DNA of 64,000 nt from Cruorifilaria tuberocauda (Eukaryota > Nematoda > Chromadorea > Rhabditida > Onchocercidae): assembly GCA_013365365.1 (NCBI GenBank), contig JABVXU010000156.1, positions 1 to 64,000 on the forward strand, read 5' to 3'. The translations under genes were made by a program, and so were the position numbers. Shown here piece by piece: positions 6,190 to 62,985 of this stretch. Position 1 is the first letter of the stretch. Each line of letters begins with the position of its first letter. Below the pieces are notes generated by a model. That model worked only from the letters and a program-made list of their open reading frames with translations. It did not search any database and was not told the DNA's origin.

Positions 6190-8148
6190 AATCCATTTTT
6201 CTGTTTCTTTTGATTTTTTTTGCAATATTAAAATTATTTTTGGCAAGTTTTCCTGGCATATTCATTTTGTTTTAATTTAAATCTATTATATCACTTGGAA
6301 CTATCATTGATTGACAATATTATTTCCTTTTATGTTATATCACTTCTGTTGTATTTTATTCTGCATGAAGTAAATGCGAATTAATAGTTTTTATATTTGG
6401 TGAAAAATATATTTCATCACCAACTTAAATAGATATTTTGCTAAATATGTATTCTATAATTTAAAATCATAAAATTATTAATCCGTAAAAATCATGTTAT
6501 CTTCTTCTTTGTGTTTCTTCATTTATTTTGTTCGCTTTTCTTGTGATACTTGAAAGGTTAATAAAACTGAATGAAATGAACGAATTCATCACTAATTCAA
6601 CGAGACTACCAAATGAGGAGGTCGGTTACTGTATATTTGGTTAGGAGCAAATGGAGTAGGGAATACACCAATTTAGATGAGCAGTCATTTTAATGTGATA
6701 GCAAGAGGATAAACATGAATAATTAATTAACATGATAGATTTTAAATTTGTTGATTGGGTTCAATTTGATGGGTTTCGTCTTTTAAGGACAACTTTCAGC
6801 AAATTGAAGAAATTTGAATTTAAAAGATATCGATGTCTAGATCAAAAATTGGCTAAACCGACAGAATCTATAATGTGATATTTGAATAATGTGCTTTATA
6901 AGGAAGAATGTTCTCGAAGTATTTGTCAGGAAAGAACAAAACTTTACATAAGTTCCAGCGATGCTAAAATCATTTAATTTTCCCGAAGAATTCTTGATGA
7001 AAAATTTCGAAGTTGGAATTTTGATGAAATGTAACAATTTTTCAAAAAATTTGTTGCATATAGAGGTTTTTTAAAGTGAGAAAAAAAAAGAAGATTGGAA
7101 AGGTCGCATGAAATAGGTGTGAATTTTATTCGACTGGACAAAACTATTGCTGGAAAGGTACATAGCGAATAATTATGGAATCAATGAAATTCGCGATTTT
7201 TGAATTACCAGGTGCGAAATGTTATTGCTTTGCTATGAATGCCGCTACTCCTACTGCAAGAACTTTGTTATAACAATAACAACATTTATCGTTTTTCAAT
7301 TCTCAGAATTTGGACTATAAAATGATGAGGAATTTGACTTTTAAATTTCACTTTTCATATTTTAAAAAAAAAAAGAAAAATCAATCTTATTGCAATAATA
7401 CAACGAATGATTTCAAATACAAGGAAATTTAGCAAATTTAGAAATTTTGATATTGATCACAAAATTTAAATCCATATTTGTTTAATGAATTGATTAGATT
7501 ACTTACTTAAGAATTTTACCTTTTTTTCTTTTTTACAATTTGTTTGAATAACATCGATTCTGTTTAGCTAATTTTTTAGCTGAATATTTATTTTTATACT
7601 TTTAAAAGTGTAATTTGATTTCTTTTTTTTTCTAAATAAATTGTTAATCCTTATTAATGTACAAAAGAGACAAAAAAAAATTAAATTTATTTTTGAATTT
7701 TGAAAAATTCATTGACTAGTATTACCAGTACATGTTAATCATATAAATAAGTAGCAAAGATTTAAAGGTTGCAGTATCGAATTTAATTCGAAATCAATAA
7801 GTGAATGAATTAAAAAAATAGTACCACAAAATTTTACTAATTATCTTGCACTTGAAATAAATTTTACATGAGTAATTATAATTATAAGTTTCATGAAAAT
7901 TACAATTTATTTGAAATGCAAAATTGGCCGCCAATAATTGTTTAATAATGCTTTACTTGTTATCCTTGAAGGTTTTTCGTTTCTTTTTCTTTTTCCTTCC
8001 TATAGAATAAATTATGATATGAGGCTAATATTGAGAAAGCCTTTAATTCTATTATCATTGAGAAAGTATATAATGAATATTCAAAGCATTGCAATAATGG
8101 AATATATTTATGATTGTTTCATGAAAAAAAAGAAAATCTATTTTAAAA
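6190..8148. other. Intergenic region between two convergent genes
   Basis: AT-rich sequence holding the 3' flanks of both converging genes. AATAAA at 6560-6565 (plus) may end the left gene, and TTTATT at 7906-7911 is AATAAA on the minus strand, 238 bp past the Antp-type stop. No convincing gene is seen. Confidence 0.45.
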
Positions 8149-8414
8149 TCAATTTTCGAAATTATGAATATTCCTGTGCTCTTCCTTTGCCTTATCCTCC
8201 TTTTTCTTCTTCATCCGACGATTTTGAAACCAAATTTTGATTTGTCGCTCGGTGAGACCCAACATTCGATTTAATTCAATGCGCCGTCGTCGAGTTAAAT
8301 ATTTGTTGTAGTGAAATTCCTTCTCAAGTTCCAACGTTTGCTGACGACTGTACGTCTGCCTCCCTCTCTTCTTACAGTTATCTGCAATGATTGCATTTTG
8401 TTTCTGGATCATCG
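8149..8414 (-). CDS. ant-1: Antennapedia-type Hox homeobox exon (3' terminal coding exon)
   Basis: This exon encodes a complete 60-residue Antp-class homeodomain, [10 protein letters not shown] through MKKKKED, with the diagnostic [19 protein letters not shown] first half and the recognition helix [11 protein letters not shown] carrying Gln50, Asn51 and Arg53. A 14-residue tail follows before TGA at 8149-8151. The exon opens at 8414 after a good acceptor (cttcacttccag) with the bases CG, so it needs a phase-1 upstream exon. The only such donor I see is that of the egl-5 first exon at 10752. Joined that way it gives a 220-residue protein with the homeodomain at about 147-206. An ATG lies two bases inside the exon, so spliced-leader addition at the same acceptor could instead give an 87-residue, homeodomain-only protein. 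The KRGRQTY and YLTRRRRIE signatures fit the Antp group better than mab-5 (which has KRTRQTY, TRKRRQE) or egl-5. The role is a sequence-specific nuclear transcription factor in body-axis patterning. The symbol is from memory of filarial Hox names; C. elegans lacks this gene. Confidence 0.88.
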
Positions 8415-9387
8415 CTGGAAGTGAAGAGCACAGGAATATATTTGTTTTTTTTTTTTTTTATTTTCAATAAATGGATGTTTTTTGATTTTGTAGTAAATTT
8501 TGTCAAACATATTTATAGAATGAAAGTGTTAGGCAAGAGATGCAAGTAGATTTAAGTTAATGTAATGTCTTGAAAAACTGGAAGATGAAGAATAGTGAGA
8601 ATTAGCTTTTTTTCTTTTTGTTTTATTTTATAAGTAAATAAATTTAGCTGTTCAGAAGTTTTAAGTTGAGAAGTTTAAAATTTTAATAGCACTATAAGCA
8701 GCGTAATAATTTTTAATAAAAAGAACTTTTTAGAACTCATTTAAATTTTAAGATGAAATAGCAATTAAAAATTTTAATTAAATATTAAAGCTTAAAATTT
8801 GACTGTCAATTTTATCAGCAGTTAAATTGTAATTTGGAAAAAAAAAAAGGCGACAACATTTTCTGTCATTCATAACTTCTTCATTCATTCATACATTCAT
8901 TCATTCATCCAAAGGAATAAAGGCGCTCAAACAACACTCCCATATACGGTAATCATATAAAATTAAAATTAAAATTTGTGATCACAATCGAACATACAAT
9001 AATGCATCAAACTGAAAGGGAAAATCAATTTCTCTGAAGAGAATTAATTCAAATGCATAAATTAAAACGAGAAATTAACAAATTAAATTTCTTAATCGAA
9101 TTTTACAAAGTTTCAACTCTACTTAAATGAAATAAATTAATTACTTTACTGATTACATTTACTTATATTAGCCTAATGAAAACATTTGCAATTGTATCGA
9201 AATACTTTACAGTTTTTTTAGGCTCATTACCATCTAACTAGACGAGTATCAGTTTGTTGCATATTCTATAATCAATGAAAACAAAAACCACCGGTAATAA
9301 AGTAAAGAGAAACATTGATCGGTTTGCATTATAGCACATGTAAAAATGCACATATACAAAATATAAAATCCATCATCAAATCAGATT
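8415..9387 (-). other. Spacer between the two homeobox exons (intron if the unit is alternatively spliced)
   Basis: 973 bp of AT-rich sequence. No additional exon with a phase-1 donor and Hox-like residues is visible here, which is why an independent first exon for the Antp-type homeobox is doubtful. A short cattcattcat-type run is at about 8881-8908 and a TACGGTA heptamer at 8945-8951. Confidence 0.5.
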
Positions 9388-11149
9388 TCATAAATTGGGC
9401 GGACAAATCGGATAGGGTACATAGGATGCTGGATGAGGTGGTACCTGATTAGGCCATGGCTGCGACATCGCTGGCATCGCTGGCATACACCAACCTGCGC
9501 CAGCGGTCACTTTTTTATCTACGCGTTCTTCAACTGCGGCTGCGGCTGCAGCCGCAGCCGCAGCCGCAGCAGCACTATCAACTACCAATTGCTTGGGTGG
9601 ATTCGCTGGAAGTAAAGCAGAATGCTCGTTTTGCTCCTCGCAACGATTCTTCTCCTTCTTCGCTTTCATCCGACGATTTTGAAACCATATTTTGATTTGT
9701 CGATCACTTAAATTGGTTTGTAGCCGAAGCTCTTCACGTTGCTTTTTACTCACGTAGCTGCTTTGCTGGAATTTGCTTTCGAGCACGGACGTTTGATAAC
9801 GTTGATATGTTTGACGACCCTTTTTCGATTGCGCTGCAATTTTAGATCAAACAAAATTCTCCCAAATATTTTATCGCCTTTTTCGATCTCGTTCACTTTA
9901 TCATTTCGGGATTTCTATTTCAATTTGAAAATTTTTATAAATTTTAATTTAAACTTTTAACAAGCTCAAATTATATCTGTATTGCCAAAAATATATTTTT
10001 AAAGTGAAAATCAACTCATAAAGAAGAATGAAATGATGAATCGATCATAATTAACCATGAAAAACAATGGTATAACGATAAATAAAAATCTAAAGAATAA
10101 AATTCAAAGTTCTTTTCGATTTTAGAAGTTTTGTGAAATTTGATAAATTCAGCAAAGATAAATCTTTCATTGATGTTGAACTTTAAATGTTATAATAATG
10201 GATATCAACGAAATGGTCAAACTTAAAAAATTGGCCAGTAAATAAGCAATAGTGTGTTATTGTTATAATTAACTATAATAAGAATTATTATTAATAATTG
10301 AATAACAAAACTGGAACAATAGCGATGAACTTGTATTTAAATAAAAGTTGGTGTGATCAGGTTCTCTGTTTGGTGATACCAATGATACTAAGGAAATGCT
10401 GGCAAGGATCAGATAAGAGTTGAACCAAACGTGGTTTTAATAGTTTAATGAACCGAAACCGTTAAGCTAATATTTGAACAATAGCATTTTGGTGTGATTT
10501 GATCAATGTCTAATCGAATGATCGGTGGGGCCCGACGAAATGCTTCATTAAAAAGGGTGAGAAGGGTATTAAATAAAAATTTATGGACAATTAAATAAAA
10601 TAAAAAGATAGAATGAGTATTAGCAGTATGTATTCATCCATGAATTGGCCCTTAGAGACGGATAGATGGACAAACAAACAACAAAGATGATTTGAACGAG
10701 GAAATCGAATTAATAGCCGCCATGAACATAAATTTCATTAAATTTAACTCACCATAATTTGGCCAATGTGGAGGTGCGTAGCATTGTGCGGGCCATGCAG
10801 AAAATGCAGCCGCAGCTGGATTCATTGGCTGCCCGAATTGTTGATAATAATTAGGCCAATTGCCATACTGCTGTACATATGCAGCAGCAGCAGCACTCTG
10901 ATATAAGGCTGGATCCGGTTGAGTGGTAGTCGAATTGGGGTCACTACTATCGGAGGAACCGGAAGATTTTGTCGTGGTTGATGAAGAAGTGGTATGACCG
11001 ACACCTTGAGTCATTTGTGCAAGTCGTTGCAGATGATCATCCGTTGGAATAGCAGCGGCTACTGCAGCTGATGCTGCCGCATCTTGAAAACTTCTTGAAC
11101 CGGAAGCGGGAAATTCAAAACCCATCGCTGAAAGCGCTGGTGCATTCAT
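9388..11149 (-). CDS. egl-5: EGL-5 Hox transcription factor (two coding exons)
   Basis: Exon 1 is 10753-11149 (132 codons plus one base, donor gtgagt) and exon 2 is 9388-9833 (acceptor attgcag, stop included). The join reads PNY-A-QSKKGRQTYQR and gives 280 residues. The homeodomain is at 135-194: SKKGRQTYQRYQTSVLESKF, then the stretch QSSYVSKKQREELR, ending with helix 3 [16 protein letters not shown] (Gln50, Asn51, Arg53). The RQTYQRYQTSVLE and SSYVSKKQREELRLQT signature and the LLPANPP motif just after the homeodomain (206-212) match nematode EGL-5 as I remember it. Exon 1 has a Ser/Thr-rich stretch around 52-76, alanine runs and a Trp/Tyr-rich end (HWPNY). Exon 2 has 13 alanines (220-232) and a Pro-rich C-terminus. 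The start codon at 11149 is preceded by an in-frame TAA, and an AG acceptor four bases upstream suggests trans-splicing. EGL-5 is a nuclear regulator of posterior cell fates in nematodes. Confidence 0.93.
9534..9563. repeat. 30-bp perfect palindrome within the egl-5 poly-alanine codons
   Basis: The left half CTGCGGCTGCGGCTG (9534-9548) is the exact reverse complement of 9549-9563. On the coding strand the run uses GCT/GCG codons in its first half and GCA/GCC in its second, which makes it palindromic while still coding alanine. Confidence 0.9.
9834..10752 (-). other. egl-5 intron
   Basis: 919-bp AT-rich intron between the donor gtgagt (10752) and the acceptor attgcag (9834-9835). It is phase 1 and interrupts the coding region two residues before the homeodomain. 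No embedded gene is seen. A GC-richer patch with tggggcccga lies near 10525-10540. Confidence 0.8.
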
Positions 11150-49194: not shown

Positions 49195-49528
49195 CCGACG
49201 ACAATACTACGTAAAGTGGTAATGTTGAGGGAAGTTGAAATGTACTTTCTCTAACTTTCCATGGAAATAGCTGTTGATAATTAATCTATCTGACGAGAGA
49301 GGTGATATCATATTGATTGATTGACTGATCAACTAGAATATTCGACTGATTTGATAGTTGAAATGTTCAAGTGAACGAATTAAATTGATTTCCTCATAGT
49401 ATCACTTTAATAAAAAAGCAAAAGATTGAAGAGAAATTTTGAAATTTGATAAGAATTCGAAGTTGCAATAATCTATTGAATCTTCAATTGCAATACAGTC
49501 GCGAATACCAATGTTGGGAGGGACAGGG

Positions 49529-53900: not shown

Positions 53901-56900
53901 TGGAATAAGTTATCATAAGGTCATCTTTGTGCAATGATCATCACCGTTATCATCATTACTTTTAATAGACTATATGCGTGTGCGGTAGTATATTTGGCCT
54001 GATATCGTTCCATCCCTTATATTGCATATATAATTCACATTTTATTGCTCGATTTACGGCTCGTTTACGATAATGCCCGAATGTACTCTTTCCCTCTCTC
54101 TCTCCCTCTCCCTTTCTTTTTTTTGTCCATTCCCTCTGTCCACTCCCTCTCAACTCTTTCTTTATTCATACACACACACACACACAGACCGATCGTACAC
54201 TTGACCAGTTACCGGACATGAACGATCACCGAGGAAACTACAAAAAGAACGAAGGGATTGGGAAAAAAAAAAGAGAGGAAAGAATAGAAAATCAAGAAAG
54301 TCACATCGTTTATTAATCGTTACTTTTTTAAGATGGAAAAAAGGTTACAGTCACAATTATTGTTATTGTCGTCACTGTAATTATCTAGCTGTCATTGTTG
54401 TCACCACAATCGTTATCATCGTAATTTATCGTTATCATCATTATTGTCATCATTTGTTGTCACAGTTTTGTGAGTAACCCTCCCATCAGTTTAGTTTATT
54501 CAATATCATTGAATTTAGCAACTCTTCTGTAGCCTTCTTACAGTTGAATCCAAGAAAGATTCAATTCTGTATTTATCAGAAATCGTCTTCTCGAAGAATA
54601 TATTTATCATTCTTATCAATAAGAAATAGTTATTTCGTTTGGTATTTTTTTTTTCGACATTTGTAAGATAGTAAAGAAAAAAGTATGGAATTCCATTTTT
54701 GGCTAATTTTTGTCAATTTTAAATTGCTTATTTCTTTGGAAAATAACAACTGACAGAATTTGGATGAAAGGATTTCATAGAAAGAAGAAGTGAATATATA
54801 AACATTCAACCTTTTGCTATTCAGAAAAGTGACTGAAGAAGAAGCGAAAGTTTTTGGTCATTAATCTTCTCCTTGAGAAAACTCTTTTTCTTCTAAATCG
54901 ACGCGTTCAAATCAAATCGTCACAACAAAGTTGACAGATTATTTTAACTTATTTCAATTGTTCTTTTTGGAATACAGTTACGCTTGATGAGAGTACTAAA
55001 AATGTTGCTTCAAGTTAAATTTAATTAAATATTTTAATATCAGTTTAAATTGTATATTTTACAGATTCCCAAATTACAATGCTTTACAACCGGCGTCCAC
55101 GTCACATTTGCCGGTGATAAGCGGTGAACGAGCGGTGCAAATAAATCAGCCGGTGTTTCCATGGATGAAAATGAGTGGTTAGTCTAAAAGTTTGCGAAAT
55201 GTTTCAATGATTCATTTCGAGAATTTTACTTATTGATTTATTCAATTTAAATTACACGGATTTGTGTAGAAGTGAATTTTGCTTACTTAAAATGGAATAA
55301 ATCTCATTTATATTTTAAGAGTTAATAAGCATACAATTTCCTCATTCTTAAGCATCATTAAGCTTCGTTCATCATAAATTTTATGAGATTTCCTTCATGA
55401 GCTACCATAGTTTTCATCTGATAACAATGATCAAAGGTGATAAATTGCAGTAATTGCATTAAATGAAGTAATTGATATCTGCCAGGGAAGTTAATTTTAT
55501 TTCGTTTAATATTGTTTTCTCTATTCATTCCTGCTATTCTTATTATCAAAATCATTATTATGACTTCTGTAAGTTTGATAGAATAAGCATAGTGATATCC
55601 AATCTTCTTAAGTTGAACTATTAGATAATAGTTAATACTTAAGTGTATTTTTTGCAGAAGTAATGATTGCAGAATATTTGATAACTAAATTTTAATACCA
55701 ATAAATAATAAAAATAGGATTAAAGGAGTTTGAAATAATGATATGCAATATAATAGGAATGATTTAAATAGTTTTAAAAGTTAGTTTTAAAAGGATTTGT
55801 TTATATAAATCAGAAAATATATTATTGTCTTGCAAAGCAAAGAAAGCAATAAGAAGCTTTGCTTGGAATAATTTGCAATAATTTCTGAAGATTTTTGCAA
55901 ATAATTTATCGATTTTCTCGGGAGAAAAAAAAACCAGATTTTTGATGTAATCGAAAATGAGTTTTTTTGAAATGATTGAATGGATGTAAGCGAGAGGAAT
56001 GGCAATTTGAAATGAATAATGAATGCATGTTAAAGCTATAATTTGGTTGATTGATAAGAACAATCCATGTTCATTTTAGCTTTAAATTGTCTACTGCATC
56101 ATCTCTTTCCTATCACCTGATAAGAATTACGACAAATTATTATCATTTATTACTATTAATTAATTAATTAATATGATCACTAACCATTATTATTAGTGTT
56201 GTAATTATTGCTATTATTATTACGGTAGTATGTTCAATTTGTAATTTAATTTCAATCATTTATAACGGTAAGAATATGAAATTAATATAATTGTAAAGCA
56301 CTTCCATAGGTTTTAGCAGTAATTAAAAAACTTTAATTTTTTTAAAGTTAAAACTAAACAAAAGAATGTGAGAAAGAAAACAAAAGGAAAGTGCAAATGA
56401 AAGGATTACTGTTTTTTCCCTCTTGTTTTTTAACATTGTGCTGTTTTAAGGTTTATCATTTTAGTGAAATGAAAAATTTTGAATTCACAGCTAGCAATCG
56501 GATAGGTTAATTCATTCTAAAATTGAATAAGACATTTCTCTCGATTTGATTCATCACTGGAAATTATATCATAACTTAATTACAACTTTTAATGAAGAAC
56601 ACGTGTGCTTTGGCGATAGAGAAAATGATTGATTTGAAATTTTGAAAATTTTTTCAACTCTTTTTTCTTACTAGAATTAAAATTCCGTTCGGTTCCAAAA
56701 ATAAATAGCTAATATTTGTGGGTGTTTGTGCTGCTTCAATGCGATCTGCTCAAAGCGCTTGTCCTACGCTAATGAATTATCGGCAAACATCAAAAAGAAA
56801 GGAAAAAAAAAACTTAGATATCCCGTGTGTATGAGCGTGCGTATGTACGTGTGTACGTGTATACGTGTCTCTGTATGTGTATGCTTCTATAAATTTATTG

Positions 56901-59900
56901 AATGTGAATTGACGTAATACGTAAGAAAGAGATATGCGCAACTGTTCAACAGATGACATCAACATTTCCTTTCCTTATCCAGATCTCGATACTTTAACCT
57001 TTATTACTAATCATAACAACTGATAGTATTGCACTCACATCTCAAGAAATAATGATATATTACTACTTTCAAATATTATGATGTGAGAAAGATGAGAGAA
57101 ATGATATTGTTTGTTGAGGAAGTGATCTGGAGATGAACAGCTTGTCACTTTTACAACATATAGCATTGAAGGGTAAAACAAGTTTAATACCGTCAAATAT
57201 CTCTCTTCCTACTAACATTTTCATTGCTAATCCAATAGCAAATGTTATCAACTCTACAGTATATTTTTCAAATTACAATTTTGAGGGATAATTTTAAATT
57301 GGCTGGATTGTAATTTGATAATTACGATTAGATACGCTCCTTAATGTAATTTAATAACAGAAATTCATTAGTTAATATTTTAAGTTCAAAATACAGTAAT
57401 GTTAGCATATATACAAACCCATCCTATGGTAATAAAGGAATTAATGGTTGAATGATTTCAGAGGGAACTGTTGAGTATTGGCATAAAATATTTGAAAATT
57501 CATTGTAAAAAAAAAAAAAAATTGTGTGTTTCTATGAAGCTCATGAAATTTTACCGTCAAGAAAGAGAGAGAGAGAGAGAGAGGGAGAGAGGAATAGAAA
57601 GAGAGAGAGAGAGAGAGAGAGCGAAATGAGTTTTTCATATGAACCCAATTTCTTCCACACGAACCCAATCTCTTCGACACCCATAAAACGACGGAATTAC
57701 GACAATGCCACTGGAAAAATGCTCAAATCGTTGTTTTTCCTCCTTTTTCTTCTCTTCTATCTCTCTTTCTCCCTCCTTCTCTCTTTCTTTTTCTCTCTAT
57801 TATTCAATGTGTAGTTCTTGCAGTTTTACTAATCGATTTAATACGAAATTTTGAAATTTTCATTTTCTTCGATTTTGAGGATTTTTTAATGCTATTAGTA
57901 ATTCGCTGAAATGAAATAATGATTGAAATTATGTCGGAGAGAAATCGATATTTCAATCTGAATTCAACCTCAAATACTTCTTTTTACCAGTTTATTGAAA
58001 TTGGGGATATTTAAAACTGTCCAAGGAAATATTATGAAAGCTGACCATTTTTAATCTCATCAAATCTTAAATTTCAAAATTAGATTCTAAGAGTTCAAAT
58101 TTACTTCGATTATATTAGAAATTTTTATCGTATTGATTGCTATCTGTTTCTACCTGTTCATCTTTTGTTTCATTTATAATTTGAAGTTTGCTAAAAACAG
58201 TAATCCATAGCACTACCGTTTATCACACAATCATTTCTATCATTAATAGTTGAATGTGATGACTAAGAAAAAATTATCTATTAGATAAACTTTCTTCAAA
58301 TGAATAAGTATATATCATTTAAGTAAACTAAAGAAATTTTTGAAATAAAGAGAATAAGTAAAATTTTGCAATGTTTACAATATGGGAAATTCGTTGAAAT
58401 GGAATGAATGAATACGGATGCTAAAAAGTAAGGGAAAAAAAAAAGACTGTTGTGTGTGATTTATTTGAAAGAAAGTTCAAAAAATAGCGCCGATCCCAAA
58501 AGACAATTGTTCATCAGTAAGTTGGATTAACTGCTTCACAGATGAATGCTTTTATCCCTGAAAACATTCTTATGGGCCATATTCTACTTTGCTGCTATTA
58601 ATAGTTGAACATCTTATCAGTGGAATAACTTTTCAATATTAATAATTTTAATGATAAATAAAAATGCCAGAAAAAATTATCAGCACTAATAATGAAATAA
58701 AGTTTAATTATTTCAATTACATTAACAGTGGTTTATCACTGGTAACAGTAATTTACTCCTTTTTTTTTTTTTTTTTGGAAAAACAATTAGAACTTGCTTT
58801 ATATGAGGAGTAGCACCATGAAATATGATTTGGTACTCATATTAAGAGTAAAATGATAAGATGATAAAATGATGATTGTATGCATGTAAATGATTTACAT
58901 TATATTTTTCTATCTAAAATTTTTTACCTTAGAAAATCTATTTTACGCGGCAATATGAAATTATCAAATGGAAAAATATTTAAACTTTTGTTAACTCAAA
59001 CCAATTTCGAATATATTTTTTTAAATGGATTTTAACGTTGACGACTTATTAATTTTCATATTAAAGAAACGCCACGAATAGTTAATTCATATTTTAATAT
59101 TAGAATTAAATTAACCTAAAATTCTTTTAATGCAAATCACTTTTATGCATACTTACCTCGTTAGAAATATGTTGAATTATTTGTAAATACTATTAAAATT
59201 TATCAATCATACAAATGTTCCCATGTATTTGTTGTAATTTATCATTTGTCAAAGTCGTTAATTTCAAAGTTTGCATCAATAGAGCAAAGGGTAGCAGAGG
59301 CGACTATAAATTTTATGAAATTTCTTACATTCAACAGAAACCCGTGAGAACTTTTGCCCAGACGAGTTTCGTTTTCAAACTTGTGACACTTGTTACTACT
59401 TTAATTTACTACTTACAACTGCTTTATTTGTTCATTAATTTCGAATAACTTCTAGCTTGCATAATATTTCCTTTATGTTATGTATTATCATACTATCATT
59501 GCTATATTTGTTCGATAAGTTATTCAACAATCTAAATATAACCAAGTTATCCTAAATACATTGATAATCAATTTGACTCCGATCAGGTTATCCTGCATAC
59601 ATTAGAAAGCAGTTTTCTTCTGATTATGCTATCTTGCATAGATATCTGGTTCCAACTAACTTATCTTACAAACATTAGAAAGGAATTTGAATGCAATAAG
59701 GTTATCATGGATGCATTAGCAGTTATCATGTTGTAACTTTAGTTATCATGATATCATGACTGAGTTATTCATGATTCGTTGTGATTACTGCTATGAAATA
59801 TTTGATATAAGTGTATGGAAATGTGATTTTCCATTAATTATTCAGCTATCTTAAATTCGATTTACTTCTATTCTTAGTTCCATTCTTTTTCCGAATAATC

Positions 59901-62900
59901 CTTCCAATCACTTCCTAAATAATAGCCAAGAGCAGCGATTATTTTAGCATTCTGTTGATGAAAGCTAATTCAAAAATGTGATAGGCTTAAAAGATGGTAT
60001 CCTCTTGAAGACTACGGTTATCCTCCTGAAGACTACGGTTATCCTCTCTCTTCAAATCCTTATTTTCCTGTTCAATACTATTAAAAACTTACTGATTACT
60101 GATTTATGCAACAACAGAAATGGTATGATATCAATATAGCACAGTGCATTCATTTCATTCGATGGCATACTGTAGGAAAAGGAAGGGGCAGGTGTGCACG
60201 CGGTTGCGATGATACGCACGTATCATCATCCTTTGACATGAGGATGATCGGGTATGATGATGATTCGGGATCTGCTATTCATGAATATGTATTCATGAAT
60301 AGCGGATCGATCATTAATTCTGATATTTTTTGGGAGAAAAAAAAAGCATGAGAAGAGAAGAAGCTAAAAATGAATTTCATTCATTTTCATCAGTTCTATC
60401 TGTCATACAGAAAAGAAATAAGATGAATTGATGGAAAATTATCAATGGAAATTTTTAATTTTATTCAAATTTTTGCGTAATCAAAAGTTTTTTTTTTTTT
60501 TTTGCATAAAAATAATGAAAGCCAAGACACTTTAATGGAAAATTCTATTACTATAATCTTTAATGAAAGATTCTATTACCCGTGGATTTACACGTGTACG
60601 TCAGTTTATTCTGTGCTAGATCACGTTACTAACAATAGATTAAGATATCAGCCATTTGCTTTAAAACATGAAGTTTACTTGAAGTATATGGATCATCAAG
60701 ACAAGTATACAAACTTGAGATTGAAAATTTTTTCATAAAACAGAGATACATCACAAACATGAGAAGGCAATCGTATGAGCCATATCAACATCCTGATCGA
60801 TCATTTTATCATAAATACTTATAAAATGATTTATTTAAAGATCAATGAATCCGAGTAAGAAAGTGGATACTGGAAATTTTCCGTAGAAATTATCCTTTCT
60901 TGAAATTTTATAAATAATAATCATGTTTACTGTATAAGACTTTTGAAATGTATCATCTCAGTCTACCCTATTATTGATAATTAGCTATCATGTTATCATG
61001 GAATCAAGAGTGAGTTGAATAAATAAAAATTTCCAATTTCTTGCTTTGGTATTGTTGTTGTTGTTGTTGCAGATAATGGCGTTGACTAATCTTGATAAAA
61101 AAAATATTGATAACAATTCCTTTTCATGTTCCGAAATACATGGCATGTGTGTGTGTGTGTGTGTCTGTGTGTGTCTGTGTGTGTGTGTATGTGTGTGTAT
61201 GTGTATGCATATTTAATACGTAAATGAAGCGTGTAACTTCTTGAAGGTACTATCACTTTATTATTATCATTCCATCAGCTTCAGCCTTCGCTTTCATGCT
61301 TACAACGGTTTGTTAGTTGAGAACGTCATATTTCATTTTGGAATCCTTTTGAAGTCCTTCCGCTCTTTCATTATTTTTCATTTATATGCCTCGAGCAATG
61401 CTCGTTTAGTAAACCGGCCATCCCGAAATATGACAATATTTTTACGACATTCGATCAAACAAAACTGGGTACATGGGTCCTTCTCTCTCTCTCTCTCTCT
61501 TTACCTCTCCCTCTCTCCCTCTCTCGCTTTCTCCTTTTTTTAAAATTTATTCACACTTCTTTCTTATCTATTCTTTTTTTCCATTTAAAAAAAAAAAAAA
61601 CTTTAAAATAAGTTTATTATGAAAGATAGTCTGTTATCTATTACGGTAAATTACGAAAAAGATTGGGCGAATGGGTACAAAGATCAAAATCTTTTTTAAA
61701 ATCGTAAGAAAATTAAGGACTAAAAGTTTAATTACATCATTAGATTAAAGATTGAAATGTTAATTTTTAAAATTTGCATCTGAAATAAACTTTCATCAAA
61801 CTCGTCAACAATTAATTTAGTTGATGAAAAGTTTTTGTAAGTTAGCAGTAATTCTTCCCAATCAATACTTTATTATATACTACAAAGATTTTATTTCTAT
61901 TCCTTTTTTTGATAAAATTCAAATATTTTACATTAATTTAAATTTCTAATACTAATATTCGAAAATTTATTTTTGTATTAATTTAAAACTTTCATTAAAT
62001 TTTCCAAAAACTTTTGGAAGTCTCAAATTGCATGTGAAACAACAGAAAGGAAATTTGAAGAAGGGTTAAAAAGAAGGCCTGAAAAAAAAGTTCGTTTTGT
62101 TTTTTTGCAAAAGCAGCGGTTTATCATTCCACTTCTCCAACGGTTTATCATTCCACTAATATAAATCAACACATATTTTGAAAATTGCTTTGACAGTTTC
62201 ACTGCTTTACTTCAAAGACAGAAACCGCTTGTTTCGTCCGTCACGAACTGAAGCACAACTTTTTTTTAAATCACTTCATTGCACAGAAATGCACAGAAAA
62301 AAAGTTAACTTTACATGTACAGTATCCTGGTACAATACGTCTTTGTGTTCCGGTTACCGTTAGCTTATTAAAATCATTACATTCCAGCAAGTTTTTTTCT
62401 TTTTTGATATTCTATTGAAAATTTTGCAAATTGTAATAAAGCTATGAAATCATGAAGAAATTCGAGAGTATAAAACTTTTTCAATTTTAAAATTTACAAA
62501 ATAAGTAAAATTTAAAATGGAAAAAAAACTTTCTAATAAAGGAAATTTGTTACTATCAAATGAAAAAAATGAAAAGCTAAAAATGTAAAATAAAATCATG
62601 AATGATCTAGATATCATTCGGATTTTTTTTTGCATTGACCTTGCCTTTGTGCATTTCTCATGATTTATTAAGTATTTATGAAGTATGTTAGGTCATTTTA
62701 TATGTGCAATGACCTCGTGAATTCTCATCACCGTTTTTTTAGGTATGCTAATGTTTAATTGTATGAAATAATTTACAACACGGTGAGTTCTAAAAAAAAT
62801 AATCACTGATCTGTGTTCACGTTTTTTTCAATTCAGGTGGCAAAGGTGGTGAATCAAAAAGGACGCGACAAACGTATAGTAGAAATCAAACGTTAGAACT

Positions 62901-62985
62901 TGAGAAGGAATTTCATTATAATAAATATTTAACGCGAAAAAGGCGACAAGAAATTTCCGAAAGTTTACAATTATCCGAACGGCAG
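50989..62985 (+). CDS. mab-5: MAB-5 Hox transcription factor (first three coding exons; 3' end beyond window)
   Basis: Exons 50989-51203, 55065-55177 and 62837-62985 join in phases 2 and 1 with good borders (gtaagt; ttttacag; gttagt; aattcag; gtttgt). The start MYPNW resembles the MAB-5 N-terminus as I remember it, and an in-frame TAG lies four codons upstream. Exon 1 is alanine-rich with Trp/Tyr residues. Exon 2 carries the FPWM hexapeptide (about 103-106), which contacts PBC-class cofactors (CEH-20/EXD type). Exon 3 reads [16 protein letters not shown], then [20 protein letters not shown], the MAB-5 signature; it covers homeodomain residues 1-44 (about 116-159). The donor falls at the common 44/45 homeobox intron position, and the part with VKIWFQNRR lies past 64000. 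Introns are long (3.86, 7.66 and more than 1.0 kb). MAB-5 is a nuclear regulator of mid-posterior fates and cell migration. Confidence 0.94.
51204..55064 (+). other. mab-5 intron 1
   Basis: 3861 bp, AT-rich, phase 2. It holds a CT tract near 53421-53450, a CA tract near 54168-54186, a run of short gtcac/gttatcatc words at 54350-54470 and a TACGGTA at 52441-52447. No embedded gene is supported. Confidence 0.8.
57561..57621. repeat. (GA)n microsatellite
   Basis: Interrupted GA dinucleotide tract in mab-5 intron 2. The Arg/Glu-rich frame across it is an artefact. Confidence 0.95.
59543..59760. repeat. Degenerate tandem array, period about 40 bp
   Basis: Recurring blocks of the form gttatcct-gcatacattagaaa start near 59545, 59586, 59627 and 59661 and again near 59700. 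Copies are diverged. A similar pattern (atcatcttagatacattaat) is seen near 63758-63800. Confidence 0.55.
59998..60046. repeat. 21-bp tandem duplication (2.3 copies)
   Basis: Copies at 59998-60018 and 60019-60039 differ by one base, followed by a partial copy. Read in plus frame they give [17 protein letters not shown], followed by a tyrosine-rich tail to TAA, so an unrecognised exon is possible but weak. Confidence 0.85.
60208..60308. other. Cluster of three inverted repeats in mab-5 intron 2
   Basis: GATGATACG (60208-60216) pairs with CGTATCATC (60219-60227). ATCATCCT near 60224-60231 pairs with AGGATGAT near 60240-60247. GATCTGCTATTCATGAATA (60269-60287) pairs with 60290-60308 across a 2-base loop with one mismatch (G-U in RNA). 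The block is GC-richer than the intron around it. Confidence 0.85.
61144..61208. repeat. (GT)n microsatellite
   Basis: Interrupted GT tract (tctgtg and tatgtg variants) in mab-5 intron 2. Confidence 0.95.

What the first reader, a model, noticed from the sequence alone, without database searches (positions are those of the whole stretch)
8149..11149. One 5' exon, two homeoboxes: egl-5 and an Antp-type homeodomain as alternative 3' exons
The egl-5 first exon ends in phase 1 (TAT G|gtgagt). The EGL-5 homeobox exon begins CG CAA and the Antp-type homeobox exon, 973 bp further on, begins CG ATG. Both are phase 1 and both complete an alanine codon (GCG). No separate first exon is visible for the Antp-type homeobox. 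A single transcription unit could therefore make two Hox proteins (280 and 220 residues) with one N-terminus and different DNA-binding classes. From memory, cis-splicing of egl-5 and Antp-type homeoboxes has been reported in Brugia malayi, so this may be the known case or its orthologue; I could not check.
Basis: partly seen in the sequence, partly recalled or inferred. Interest (0 to 1): 0.88.

Follow-up and report, generated by a model that had tools for sequence, protein, structure and literature searches.

The report
Shared-exon egl-5/ant-1 Hox gene pair
In this roundworm one starting exon can probably be spliced to either of two homeobox exons, giving two different Hox proteins; this was already reported for a related worm, and the present analysis moves one splice site and suggests that the arrangement may be old.

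Summary
On the minus strand there is one egl-5 first coding exon (11149-10753), an EGL-5 homeobox exon (9833-9388) and an Antp-class homeobox exon (ending at 8149), all in joinable phase.

The idea is already in print: a 2024 paper states that in Brugia malayi the ant-1 and egl-5 homeodomain exons are alternatively cis-spliced to one 5' exon (passage). This window is the orthologous locus in another, probably filarial, nematode: its EGL-5 is 93.7% identical to B. malayi EGL-5.

Two corrections. First, the ANT acceptor is probably 8382|8381 (ATTGCAG|AT), not 8414: at that column 7 of 8 read-through relatives carry a phase-1 CAG signature. The product is then 209 residues, not 220. Second, the matching phase carries little weight: five of five other Hox-type homeobox exons that I read in this genome also begin in phase 1.

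Strongylid relatives (another clade) show the same acceptor signature, and one gene model has the same tandem order, so the unit may be ancient rather than filaria-specific. No transcript evidence was available, and no direct hybrid protein was recognised in the database listings.

The parts
10753..11149 (-). Shared 5' coding exon (egl-5 exon 1), 132 codons plus 1 nt, ends in phase 1
   Evidence: Open frame from ATG 11149; only one place in the genome matches this part of the query (17 matches listed); aligns with B. malayi, O. flexuosa, Ascaris and Toxocara EGL-5
10754..10771 (-). W-containing motif PHWPNY directly before the splice junction; candidate PBC/CEH-20 contact motif shared by both isoforms
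   Evidence: Translation; PHWPNY also in Ascaris, Toxocara, Gnathostoma, Steinernema carpocapsae, Necator and Strongylus, but altered in C. elegans (TAWPNY) and Strongyloides (PHWSSY). Function inferred from Hox proteins in general (recalled)
10747..10752 (-). Splice donor GTGAGT, phase 1
9388..9833 (-). EGL-5 (Abd-B-type) homeobox exon, alternative last exon 1; acceptor ATTGCAG|CG
   Evidence: 280-aa open frame; 254 of 271 aligned residues identical to BMA-EGL-5 isoform c
8149..8381 (-). ANT (Antp-type) homeobox exon, alternative last exon 2, with the acceptor preferred here (ATTGCAG|AT AAC TGT), phase 1, giving 209 aa
   Evidence: Phase-1 CAG signature at this column in 7 of 8 read-through relatives; same column used in the partial Onchocerca ochengi model P0009; frame
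8382..8414 (-).
   Evidence: the homologous stretch in Elaeophora P0121 lies in another frame relative to the homeodomain
8622..8627 (-). AATAAA, candidate poly(A) signal for the EGL-5 last exon (another at 8462-8457)
   Evidence: common by chance in AT-rich DNA
7906..7911 (-). AATAAA, first candidate poly(A) signal after the ANT stop codon
   Evidence: common by chance in AT-rich DNA

Best explanation
This is the egl-5/ant-1 unit known from B. malayi, in another filaria: one transcription unit with one shared 5' coding exon and two alternative last exons. Exon 1 (N-terminus plus the W motif PHWPNY) is cis-spliced either to the EGL-5 homeobox exon, followed by cleavage in the 973-bp gap, or past it to the Antp-type homeobox exon. 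The choice would be set by competition between the first acceptor with its poly(A) site and the second acceptor. Both products would share an N-terminus and a W motif but carry an Abd-B-type or an Antp-type homeodomain, under one promoter. The ANT join is most likely at 8381 ([17 protein letters not shown], 209 aa), which puts the homeodomain at nearly the same distance from the W motif as in EGL-5 (PHWPNY-A-QSKKGRQTY). Shown here: exons, phases, open frames, conservation. Reported by others for B. malayi: the alternative cis-splicing. Inferred: use of the junctions in this species, the competition mechanism, and the function of both products.
For: Joins and open frames. PMC11603191 Discussion passage: in B. 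[quoted passage not shown] its reference 29 is Aboobaker & Blaxter 2003, not read). In eight relatives (seven short ORFs and the Trichostrongylus model) the sequence upstream of the Antp-type homeodomain diverges at one column, where Asp is preceded by A/A/S/P/T/P/P in 7 of 8, i.e. xCA|GAY, a phase-1 CAG acceptor; the eighth, Steinernema, fits one codon later. After 8381 the first in-frame ATG is inside the homeodomain (8265), so an exon starting there needs an upstream coding exon. P0004 (Trichostrongylus colubriformis, 7,180-base contig) is one gene model running EGL-5 then ANT; in P0009 (O. ochengi, partial) the EGL-5 exon is joined to ANT at the 8381-type column. P0010 (exon 1) and P0124 (ANT) both come from a Logan contig of 3,612 bases, presumably the same one.
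Against: No RNA evidence was available. Neither hybrid query (220 aa, with 7,918 candidates scored under a cap; 173-aa strongylid hybrid,833 candidates) listed a protein that I recognised as the EGL-5 N-terminus joined directly to an ANT homeodomain among the best 120 of each. I read 18 and 12 of those sequences and judged the rest by identity, coverage and name. Annotators called ANT a separate short gene in Loa, Elaeophora, Necator, Angiostrongylus and Steinernema hermaphroditum. The phase match is expected. The pyrimidine run before 8414 looks better than the one before 8381 (by eye; no matrix was run). The acceptor signature is read from proteins, not DNA, and the four strongylid-type rows are not independent. 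A FPWK motif on the minus strand at 49267 leaves room for an own 5' exon.
Confidence: 0.7

Rival explanations
1. Same shared-exon unit, but with the acceptor at 8414 as the first reader proposed (220 aa, linker [13 protein letters not shown]), alone or with 8381 as a 33-nt alternative acceptor.
For: CTTCCAG|CG is a good-looking acceptor after a pyrimidine-rich run and is in frame. The Loa model begins MTVIQKQNA, similar to the window's MIQKQNA. C at exon position +1 is no objection by itself, since the EGL-5 exon also starts with C.
Against: In Elaeophora P0121 the same stretch ([12 protein letters not shown], matching window frame 2 [12 protein letters not shown]) is in another frame relative to the homeodomain: by codon count 49 nt there against 32 nt here before the conserved Asp codon, so a join at that site would be out of frame (assembly error not excluded). 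In P0124 and the strongylid rows I see nothing matching this site, while the 8381 signature is there.
Confidence: 0.14
2. ANT is a separate cistron: trans-spliced to a spliced leader at 8414 and translated from the ATG at 8412 into an 87-residue, homeodomain-only protein, possibly as second gene of an egl-5/ant-1 operon.
For: An in-frame ATG sits two bases after the acceptor; Loa's model starts at a similar Met; AATAAA at 8627 lies about 210 nt upstream. Nematode operons and SL trans-splicing are established (recalled).
Against: The stretch with the ATG is not conserved in frame in Elaeophora, and no Met lies between the conserved acceptor column and the homeodomain in Elaeophora, P0124, Necator, Angiostrongylus, Trichostrongylus or P0041. 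Cis-splicing is reported for B. malayi.
Confidence: 0.08
3. ANT has its own 5' exon, inside an egl-5 intron or far upstream of egl-5, that I failed to recognise.
For: A short or W-motif-free exon would escape the scan; a minus-strand FPWK motif lies at 49267; annotators treat ANT as a separate gene.
Against: None of the four minus-strand motif hits is followed by a consensus donor by eye, while the mab-5-like exon is found with one. The longest ATG ORFs in the intron and the gap are 28 and 36 aa. B. malayi report.
Confidence: 0.08

Closest known systems
Brugia malayi Bm-egl-5/Bm-ant-1 unit (Aboobaker & Blaxter 2003, as cited in PMC11603191)
   Same: Same two orthologues, ant-1 after egl-5, homeodomain exons alternatively cis-spliced to one 5' exon (passage)
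   Different: Another species here; neither 2003 primary paper was read (the Current Biology one is not held), so the exact B. malayi junction could not be compared
Human/mouse Hoxc6-Hoxc5-Hoxc4 polycistronic unit (PMC1831499, passages)
   Same: Neighbouring Hox genes co-transcribed from one promoter, gene-specific transcripts made by alternative splicing
   Different: That paper defines such clusters as sharing a non-coding exon; here the shared exon codes for the N-terminus of both proteins
Arthropod/onychophoran Ubx/Antp bicistronic transcripts (PMC2938723, passages)
   Same: Two adjacent Hox genes read through together and spliced; variant II lacks the Antp sequence 5' of the homeodomain
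   Different: There Ubx 3' UTR lies between the reading frames and the bicistronic RNA is not, or only partly, translated; a monocistronic Antp transcript also exists. Here the join is in frame and no own ANT 5' exon was recognised
C. elegans unc-17/cha-1 cholinergic locus (recalled; only a search listing seen)
   Same: A shared 5' exon spliced to two different coding parts
   Different: Non-coding shared exon and unrelated proteins (recalled)

Membership tests
Nematode egl-5/ant-1 shared-exon unit (B. malayi type) | EGL-5 and Antp-type homeobox exons on one strand, ANT downstream of EGL-5 | tested here: met
Nematode egl-5/ant-1 shared-exon unit (B. malayi type) | Both homeobox exons joinable in frame to one 5' exon | tested here: met
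   280-, 220- and 209-aa frames open
Nematode egl-5/ant-1 shared-exon unit (B. malayi type) | No separate 5' coding exon for ANT | tested here: inconclusive
   No convincing one among four minus-strand motif hits in a scan that does find mab-5's exon; absence cannot be shown without RNA
Nematode egl-5/ant-1 shared-exon unit (B. malayi type) | Transcripts with both junctions | not testable with these tools
   No RNA reads; no direct hybrid recognised in the lists
EGL-5 (HOX9-13) | Orthology to named nematode EGL-5 | tested here: met
   254/271 to BMA-EGL-5 isoform c, 260/276 to O. flexuosa, 211/247 to A. suum egl-5
ANT-1 (Antp-type HOX6-8) | Homeodomain closest to the Antennapedia class | tested here: met
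   Best solved-structure hits Antennapedia 1ahd and 1hom (100.2, 99.4 bits), above Ubx 1b8i (95.0; 6m3d, engrailed fusion, 96.0); no tree was built
SL trans-spliced operon (egl-5 upstream, ant-1 downstream) | Downstream gene translatable from its own start after the acceptor, conserved in relatives | tested here: not met
   Such a Met in the window and Loa only; none before the homeodomain after the acceptor column in Elaeophora, P0124 or the four strongylid-type rows
Hoxc4/5/6-type polycistronic unit | Shared exon is non-coding | tested here: not met
   Shared exon codes for 132 residues

The most novel reading that the evidence does not exclude
The shared-exon unit is not a filarial oddity but an ancestral chromadorean state, kept in clades III and V (and perhaps Steinernema). 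In it the Antp-class gene exists only as a homeobox cassette, an alternative last exon of egl-5, with a conserved phase-1 acceptor immediately before the homeodomain. Loss of ant-1 in lineages such as Caenorhabditis would then be loss of one exon of egl-5 rather than of a free-standing Hox gene.
Probability: 0.4. Interest if true: 0.6.

Novelty: already known. Interest (0 to 1): 0.38.

Why it matters
Two Hox classes that normally mark different body regions would share one promoter, one N-terminus and one cofactor motif, and differ only in the DNA-binding domain. That is a natural domain swap: it lets one ask what the homeodomain alone contributes to Hox specificity. The 2024 review-type discussion treats the B. 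malayi case as a possible step towards loss of ant-1. If strongylids share the unit, as the acceptor signature and one gene model suggest, it would have been stable for a long time, and 'loss of ant-1' in other nematodes would be loss of an alternative last exon.

Tried and rejected
Phase and alanine coincidence as evidence: rejected, since five of five other Hox-type homeobox exons read in this genome are phase 1. Eleven distinct homeobox loci outside the unit were fetched; the acceptor was read by eye in the five Hox/ParaHox-like ones. The other six (L004-L008, L019) were printed without placing an acceptor in each; L007 also reads GCAG|AA, phase 1.

8414 as the ANT acceptor: demoted, not excluded.

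Own 5' exon of ANT: the first motif scan printed nothing, not even mab-5's exon, so it failed as a control; the relaxed scan found mab-5's exon among 14 hits, 10 plus and 4 minus.

DNA of relatives: viral contigs and genome contigs gave no relative; G000 is said to have no relatives held. So acceptor phases in relatives are inferred from protein read-through. In one search three rows were left out of the count: the window itself, O. flexuosa (starts inside the exon) and the spliced O. ochengi model.

Statistic: background 8 of 111 (hand-summed from columns -7 to -21) gives 7.6e-8 for 7 of 8, or 2.7e-5 with the rows collapsed to four lineages. The column was chosen after looking, and the rows are related, so these are illustrative only.

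Hybrid protein search: negative. Rfam scan of the window for Hox-cluster microRNAs: 0 matches at gathering threshold. Literature: searches; in what I read of them I found no statement of the unit in strongylids, but the library lacks most subscription papers and the 2003 primary papers were not read. No tree, no splice-site matrix and no structure prediction was made.

Full report
What is there. On the minus strand of the window, exon 1 runs from the ATG at 11149 to 10753 and ends TAT G|GTGAGT. The EGL-5 homeobox exon runs 9833-9388, and an Antp-type homeobox exon ends at 8149. Joined in a script, exon 1 plus EGL-5 gives 280 residues, and exon 1 plus 8414-8149 gives 220 residues, both open. 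Homeodomain matches lie at 9655-9825 and 8200-8370. Pfam scores are 71.3 and 75.4 bits, and exon 1 alone matches no Pfam family. The Antp-type domain is closest to Antennapedia among solved structures (100.2 bits, 1ahd). The EGL-5 product matches named nematode EGL-5 proteins: 254 of 271 aligned residues for BMA-EGL-5 isoform c, 260 of 276 for Onchocerca flexuosa, 211 of 247 for Ascaris suum.

Which organism. The assembly that holds the window has 71.7 Mb in 1108 contigs and no name. Its EGL-5 and ANT differ from those of B. malayi, O. flexuosa, Loa and Elaeophora seen here, so it is probably another filaria. I did not identify it further.

What is in print. PMC11603191 (abstract, section list and passages seen) says in its Discussion that in B. 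[quoted passage not shown] It adds that this might be an intermediate stage in Hox loss. It cites its reference 29, Aboobaker & Blaxter, Curr. Opin. Genet. Dev. 2003. It also reports ant-1 next to egl-5 in the core cluster of B. malayi and O. volvulus. The Current Biology 2003 paper is not held. The main claim of the finding is therefore known for the orthologous locus.

How much the phase match is worth. I read by eye the acceptors of five other Hox/ParaHox-like homeobox exons of this genome: L013 (mab-5-like, TTCAG|GT GGC), L001 (TTTCAG|GT CGT), L015 (TATAG|AT GCA), L014 (TATAG|GT TCA) and L016 (TTTCAG|AT GTA). All five are phase 1, like EGL-5. Any Hox 5' exon could thus be joined in frame to any of these homeobox exons. 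The shared phase permits the fusion but does not prove it. Gene names for these loci other than egl-5 are my recall of homeodomain signatures.

Where the ANT acceptor is. Two in-frame phase-1 acceptors exist: CTTCCAG|CG at 8415|8414 and ATTGCAG|AT at 8382|8381. Databases hold predicted proteins that read through this point in relatives. Aligned on RGRQTY, eight of them (Elaeophora, Loa, a Logan contig, Necator, Angiostrongylus, Steinernema hermaphroditum, another Logan contig, Trichostrongylus) show clearly different upstream sequences, apart from the QNA-rich stretch shared by the filariae. Just before the homeodomain they have Asp in 7 of 8, preceded by A, A, S, P, T, P, P. These are exactly the residues whose codons can read NCA, so DNA of the form NCA|GAY, a CAG acceptor in phase 1, fits all seven. 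The residue before that is F, I, F, I, V, V or V, which fits xTT, so the implied sites read TTNCAG. Steinernema would fit one codon later (T|G). In the window the same column is ATT GCA|GAT, and the heptamer ATTGCAG is identical to that before the EGL-5 exon. The partial O. ochengi model P0009 joins its EGL-5 exon to ...Y-NCKKRG, as a join at this column would give. In Elaeophora the stretch homologous to the 8414 site ([11 protein letters not shown]) lies in a different frame relative to the homeodomain, so that site would not give an in-frame join there. Using 8381, the second product is 209 residues, with [17 protein letters not shown] against PHWPNY-A-QSKKGRQTY in EGL-5.

Does ANT need an upstream exon? 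After 8381 the next in-frame ATG is at 8265, inside the homeodomain, and no Met lies between the acceptor column and the homeodomain in the other rows. A coding exon upstream is therefore needed. Between the EGL-5 stop and the ANT exon the longest ATG ORF is 36 aa. A motif scan finds the FPWM exon of the mab-5-like gene on the plus strand at 55156, with donor G|GTTAGT, and four minus-strand hits without a consensus donor by eye. One of these, FPWK at 49267, I cannot exclude strictly. Egl-5 exon 1 remains the simplest partner.

How it would work. EGL-5 use ends at a poly(A) site in the 973-bp gap (AATAAA at 8627 and 8462); ANT use skips the EGL-5 exon and ends after 8149 (AATAAA at 7911). This is an alternative-last-exon choice. 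It is inferred, and such signals are common by chance in this AT-rich DNA.

How old it is. Trichostrongylus colubriformis P0004 is a single 344-aa gene model on a 7,180-base contig that runs through EGL-5 and then an ANT homeodomain. Necator, Angiostrongylus and P0041 show the same PDAC/TDAC junction. The tandem order in one model and the same acceptor column suggest that the unit predates the split of clades III and V. This rests on gene models and inferred DNA.

Against. No RNA was seen. Neither hybrid query listed a protein that I recognised as a direct hybrid among its best 120 (candidates capped at 7,918,833 candidates). Annotators mostly call ANT a separate short gene. B. malayi EGL-5 is listed as 'isoform c', so other isoforms exist that I did not see. 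After re-checking, the minus-strand FPWK hit made me raise the own-exon rival to 0.08 and lower the best reading to 0.70.

Verdict.

Noticed in passing
window 55098-62985 (+): A mab-5-like Hox gene on the opposite strand: internal exon with [11 protein letters not shown] ending G|GTTAGT near 55189, homeobox exon starting 62837 (TTCAG|GT GGC) and interrupted by an intron after SERQ; its remaining exons lie outside or were not found.
   Followed up: partly
window 11200-55000: About 44 kb between egl-5 and the mab-5-like gene with only short, mostly low-complexity ORFs in the stop-to-stop list; possibly Hox regulatory DNA. No Rfam match in the window.
   Followed up: no
window 8383-8437 (-): The sequence just upstream of the ANT homeobox (ATTCCTGTGCTCTTCACTTCCAGCGATGATCC) appears conserved in Elaeophora ([12 protein letters not shown]0121) although it is probably intron; P0124 keeps IPVL. 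A splicing element is possible.
   Followed up: partly
P0231 and P0233 (C. elegans EGL-5 isoforms a and c): The C. elegans isoforms differ at the same exon junction by four residues (GELF), as if the donor after TAT G could be skipped for a later one.
   Followed up: no
L001 (G000 C417:914), L014 (C208:62569), L015 (C998:268193), L016 (C1025:196): Further Hox/ParaHox-like homeobox exons of the same genome on other contigs, all with phase-1 acceptors by eye.
   Followed up: partly
window 49267 (-): A minus-strand FPWK motif in a short open frame within the GC-richer 48-52 kb stretch; weak phase-1 GTs follow. Probably chance, but not excluded as an exon.
   Followed up: no
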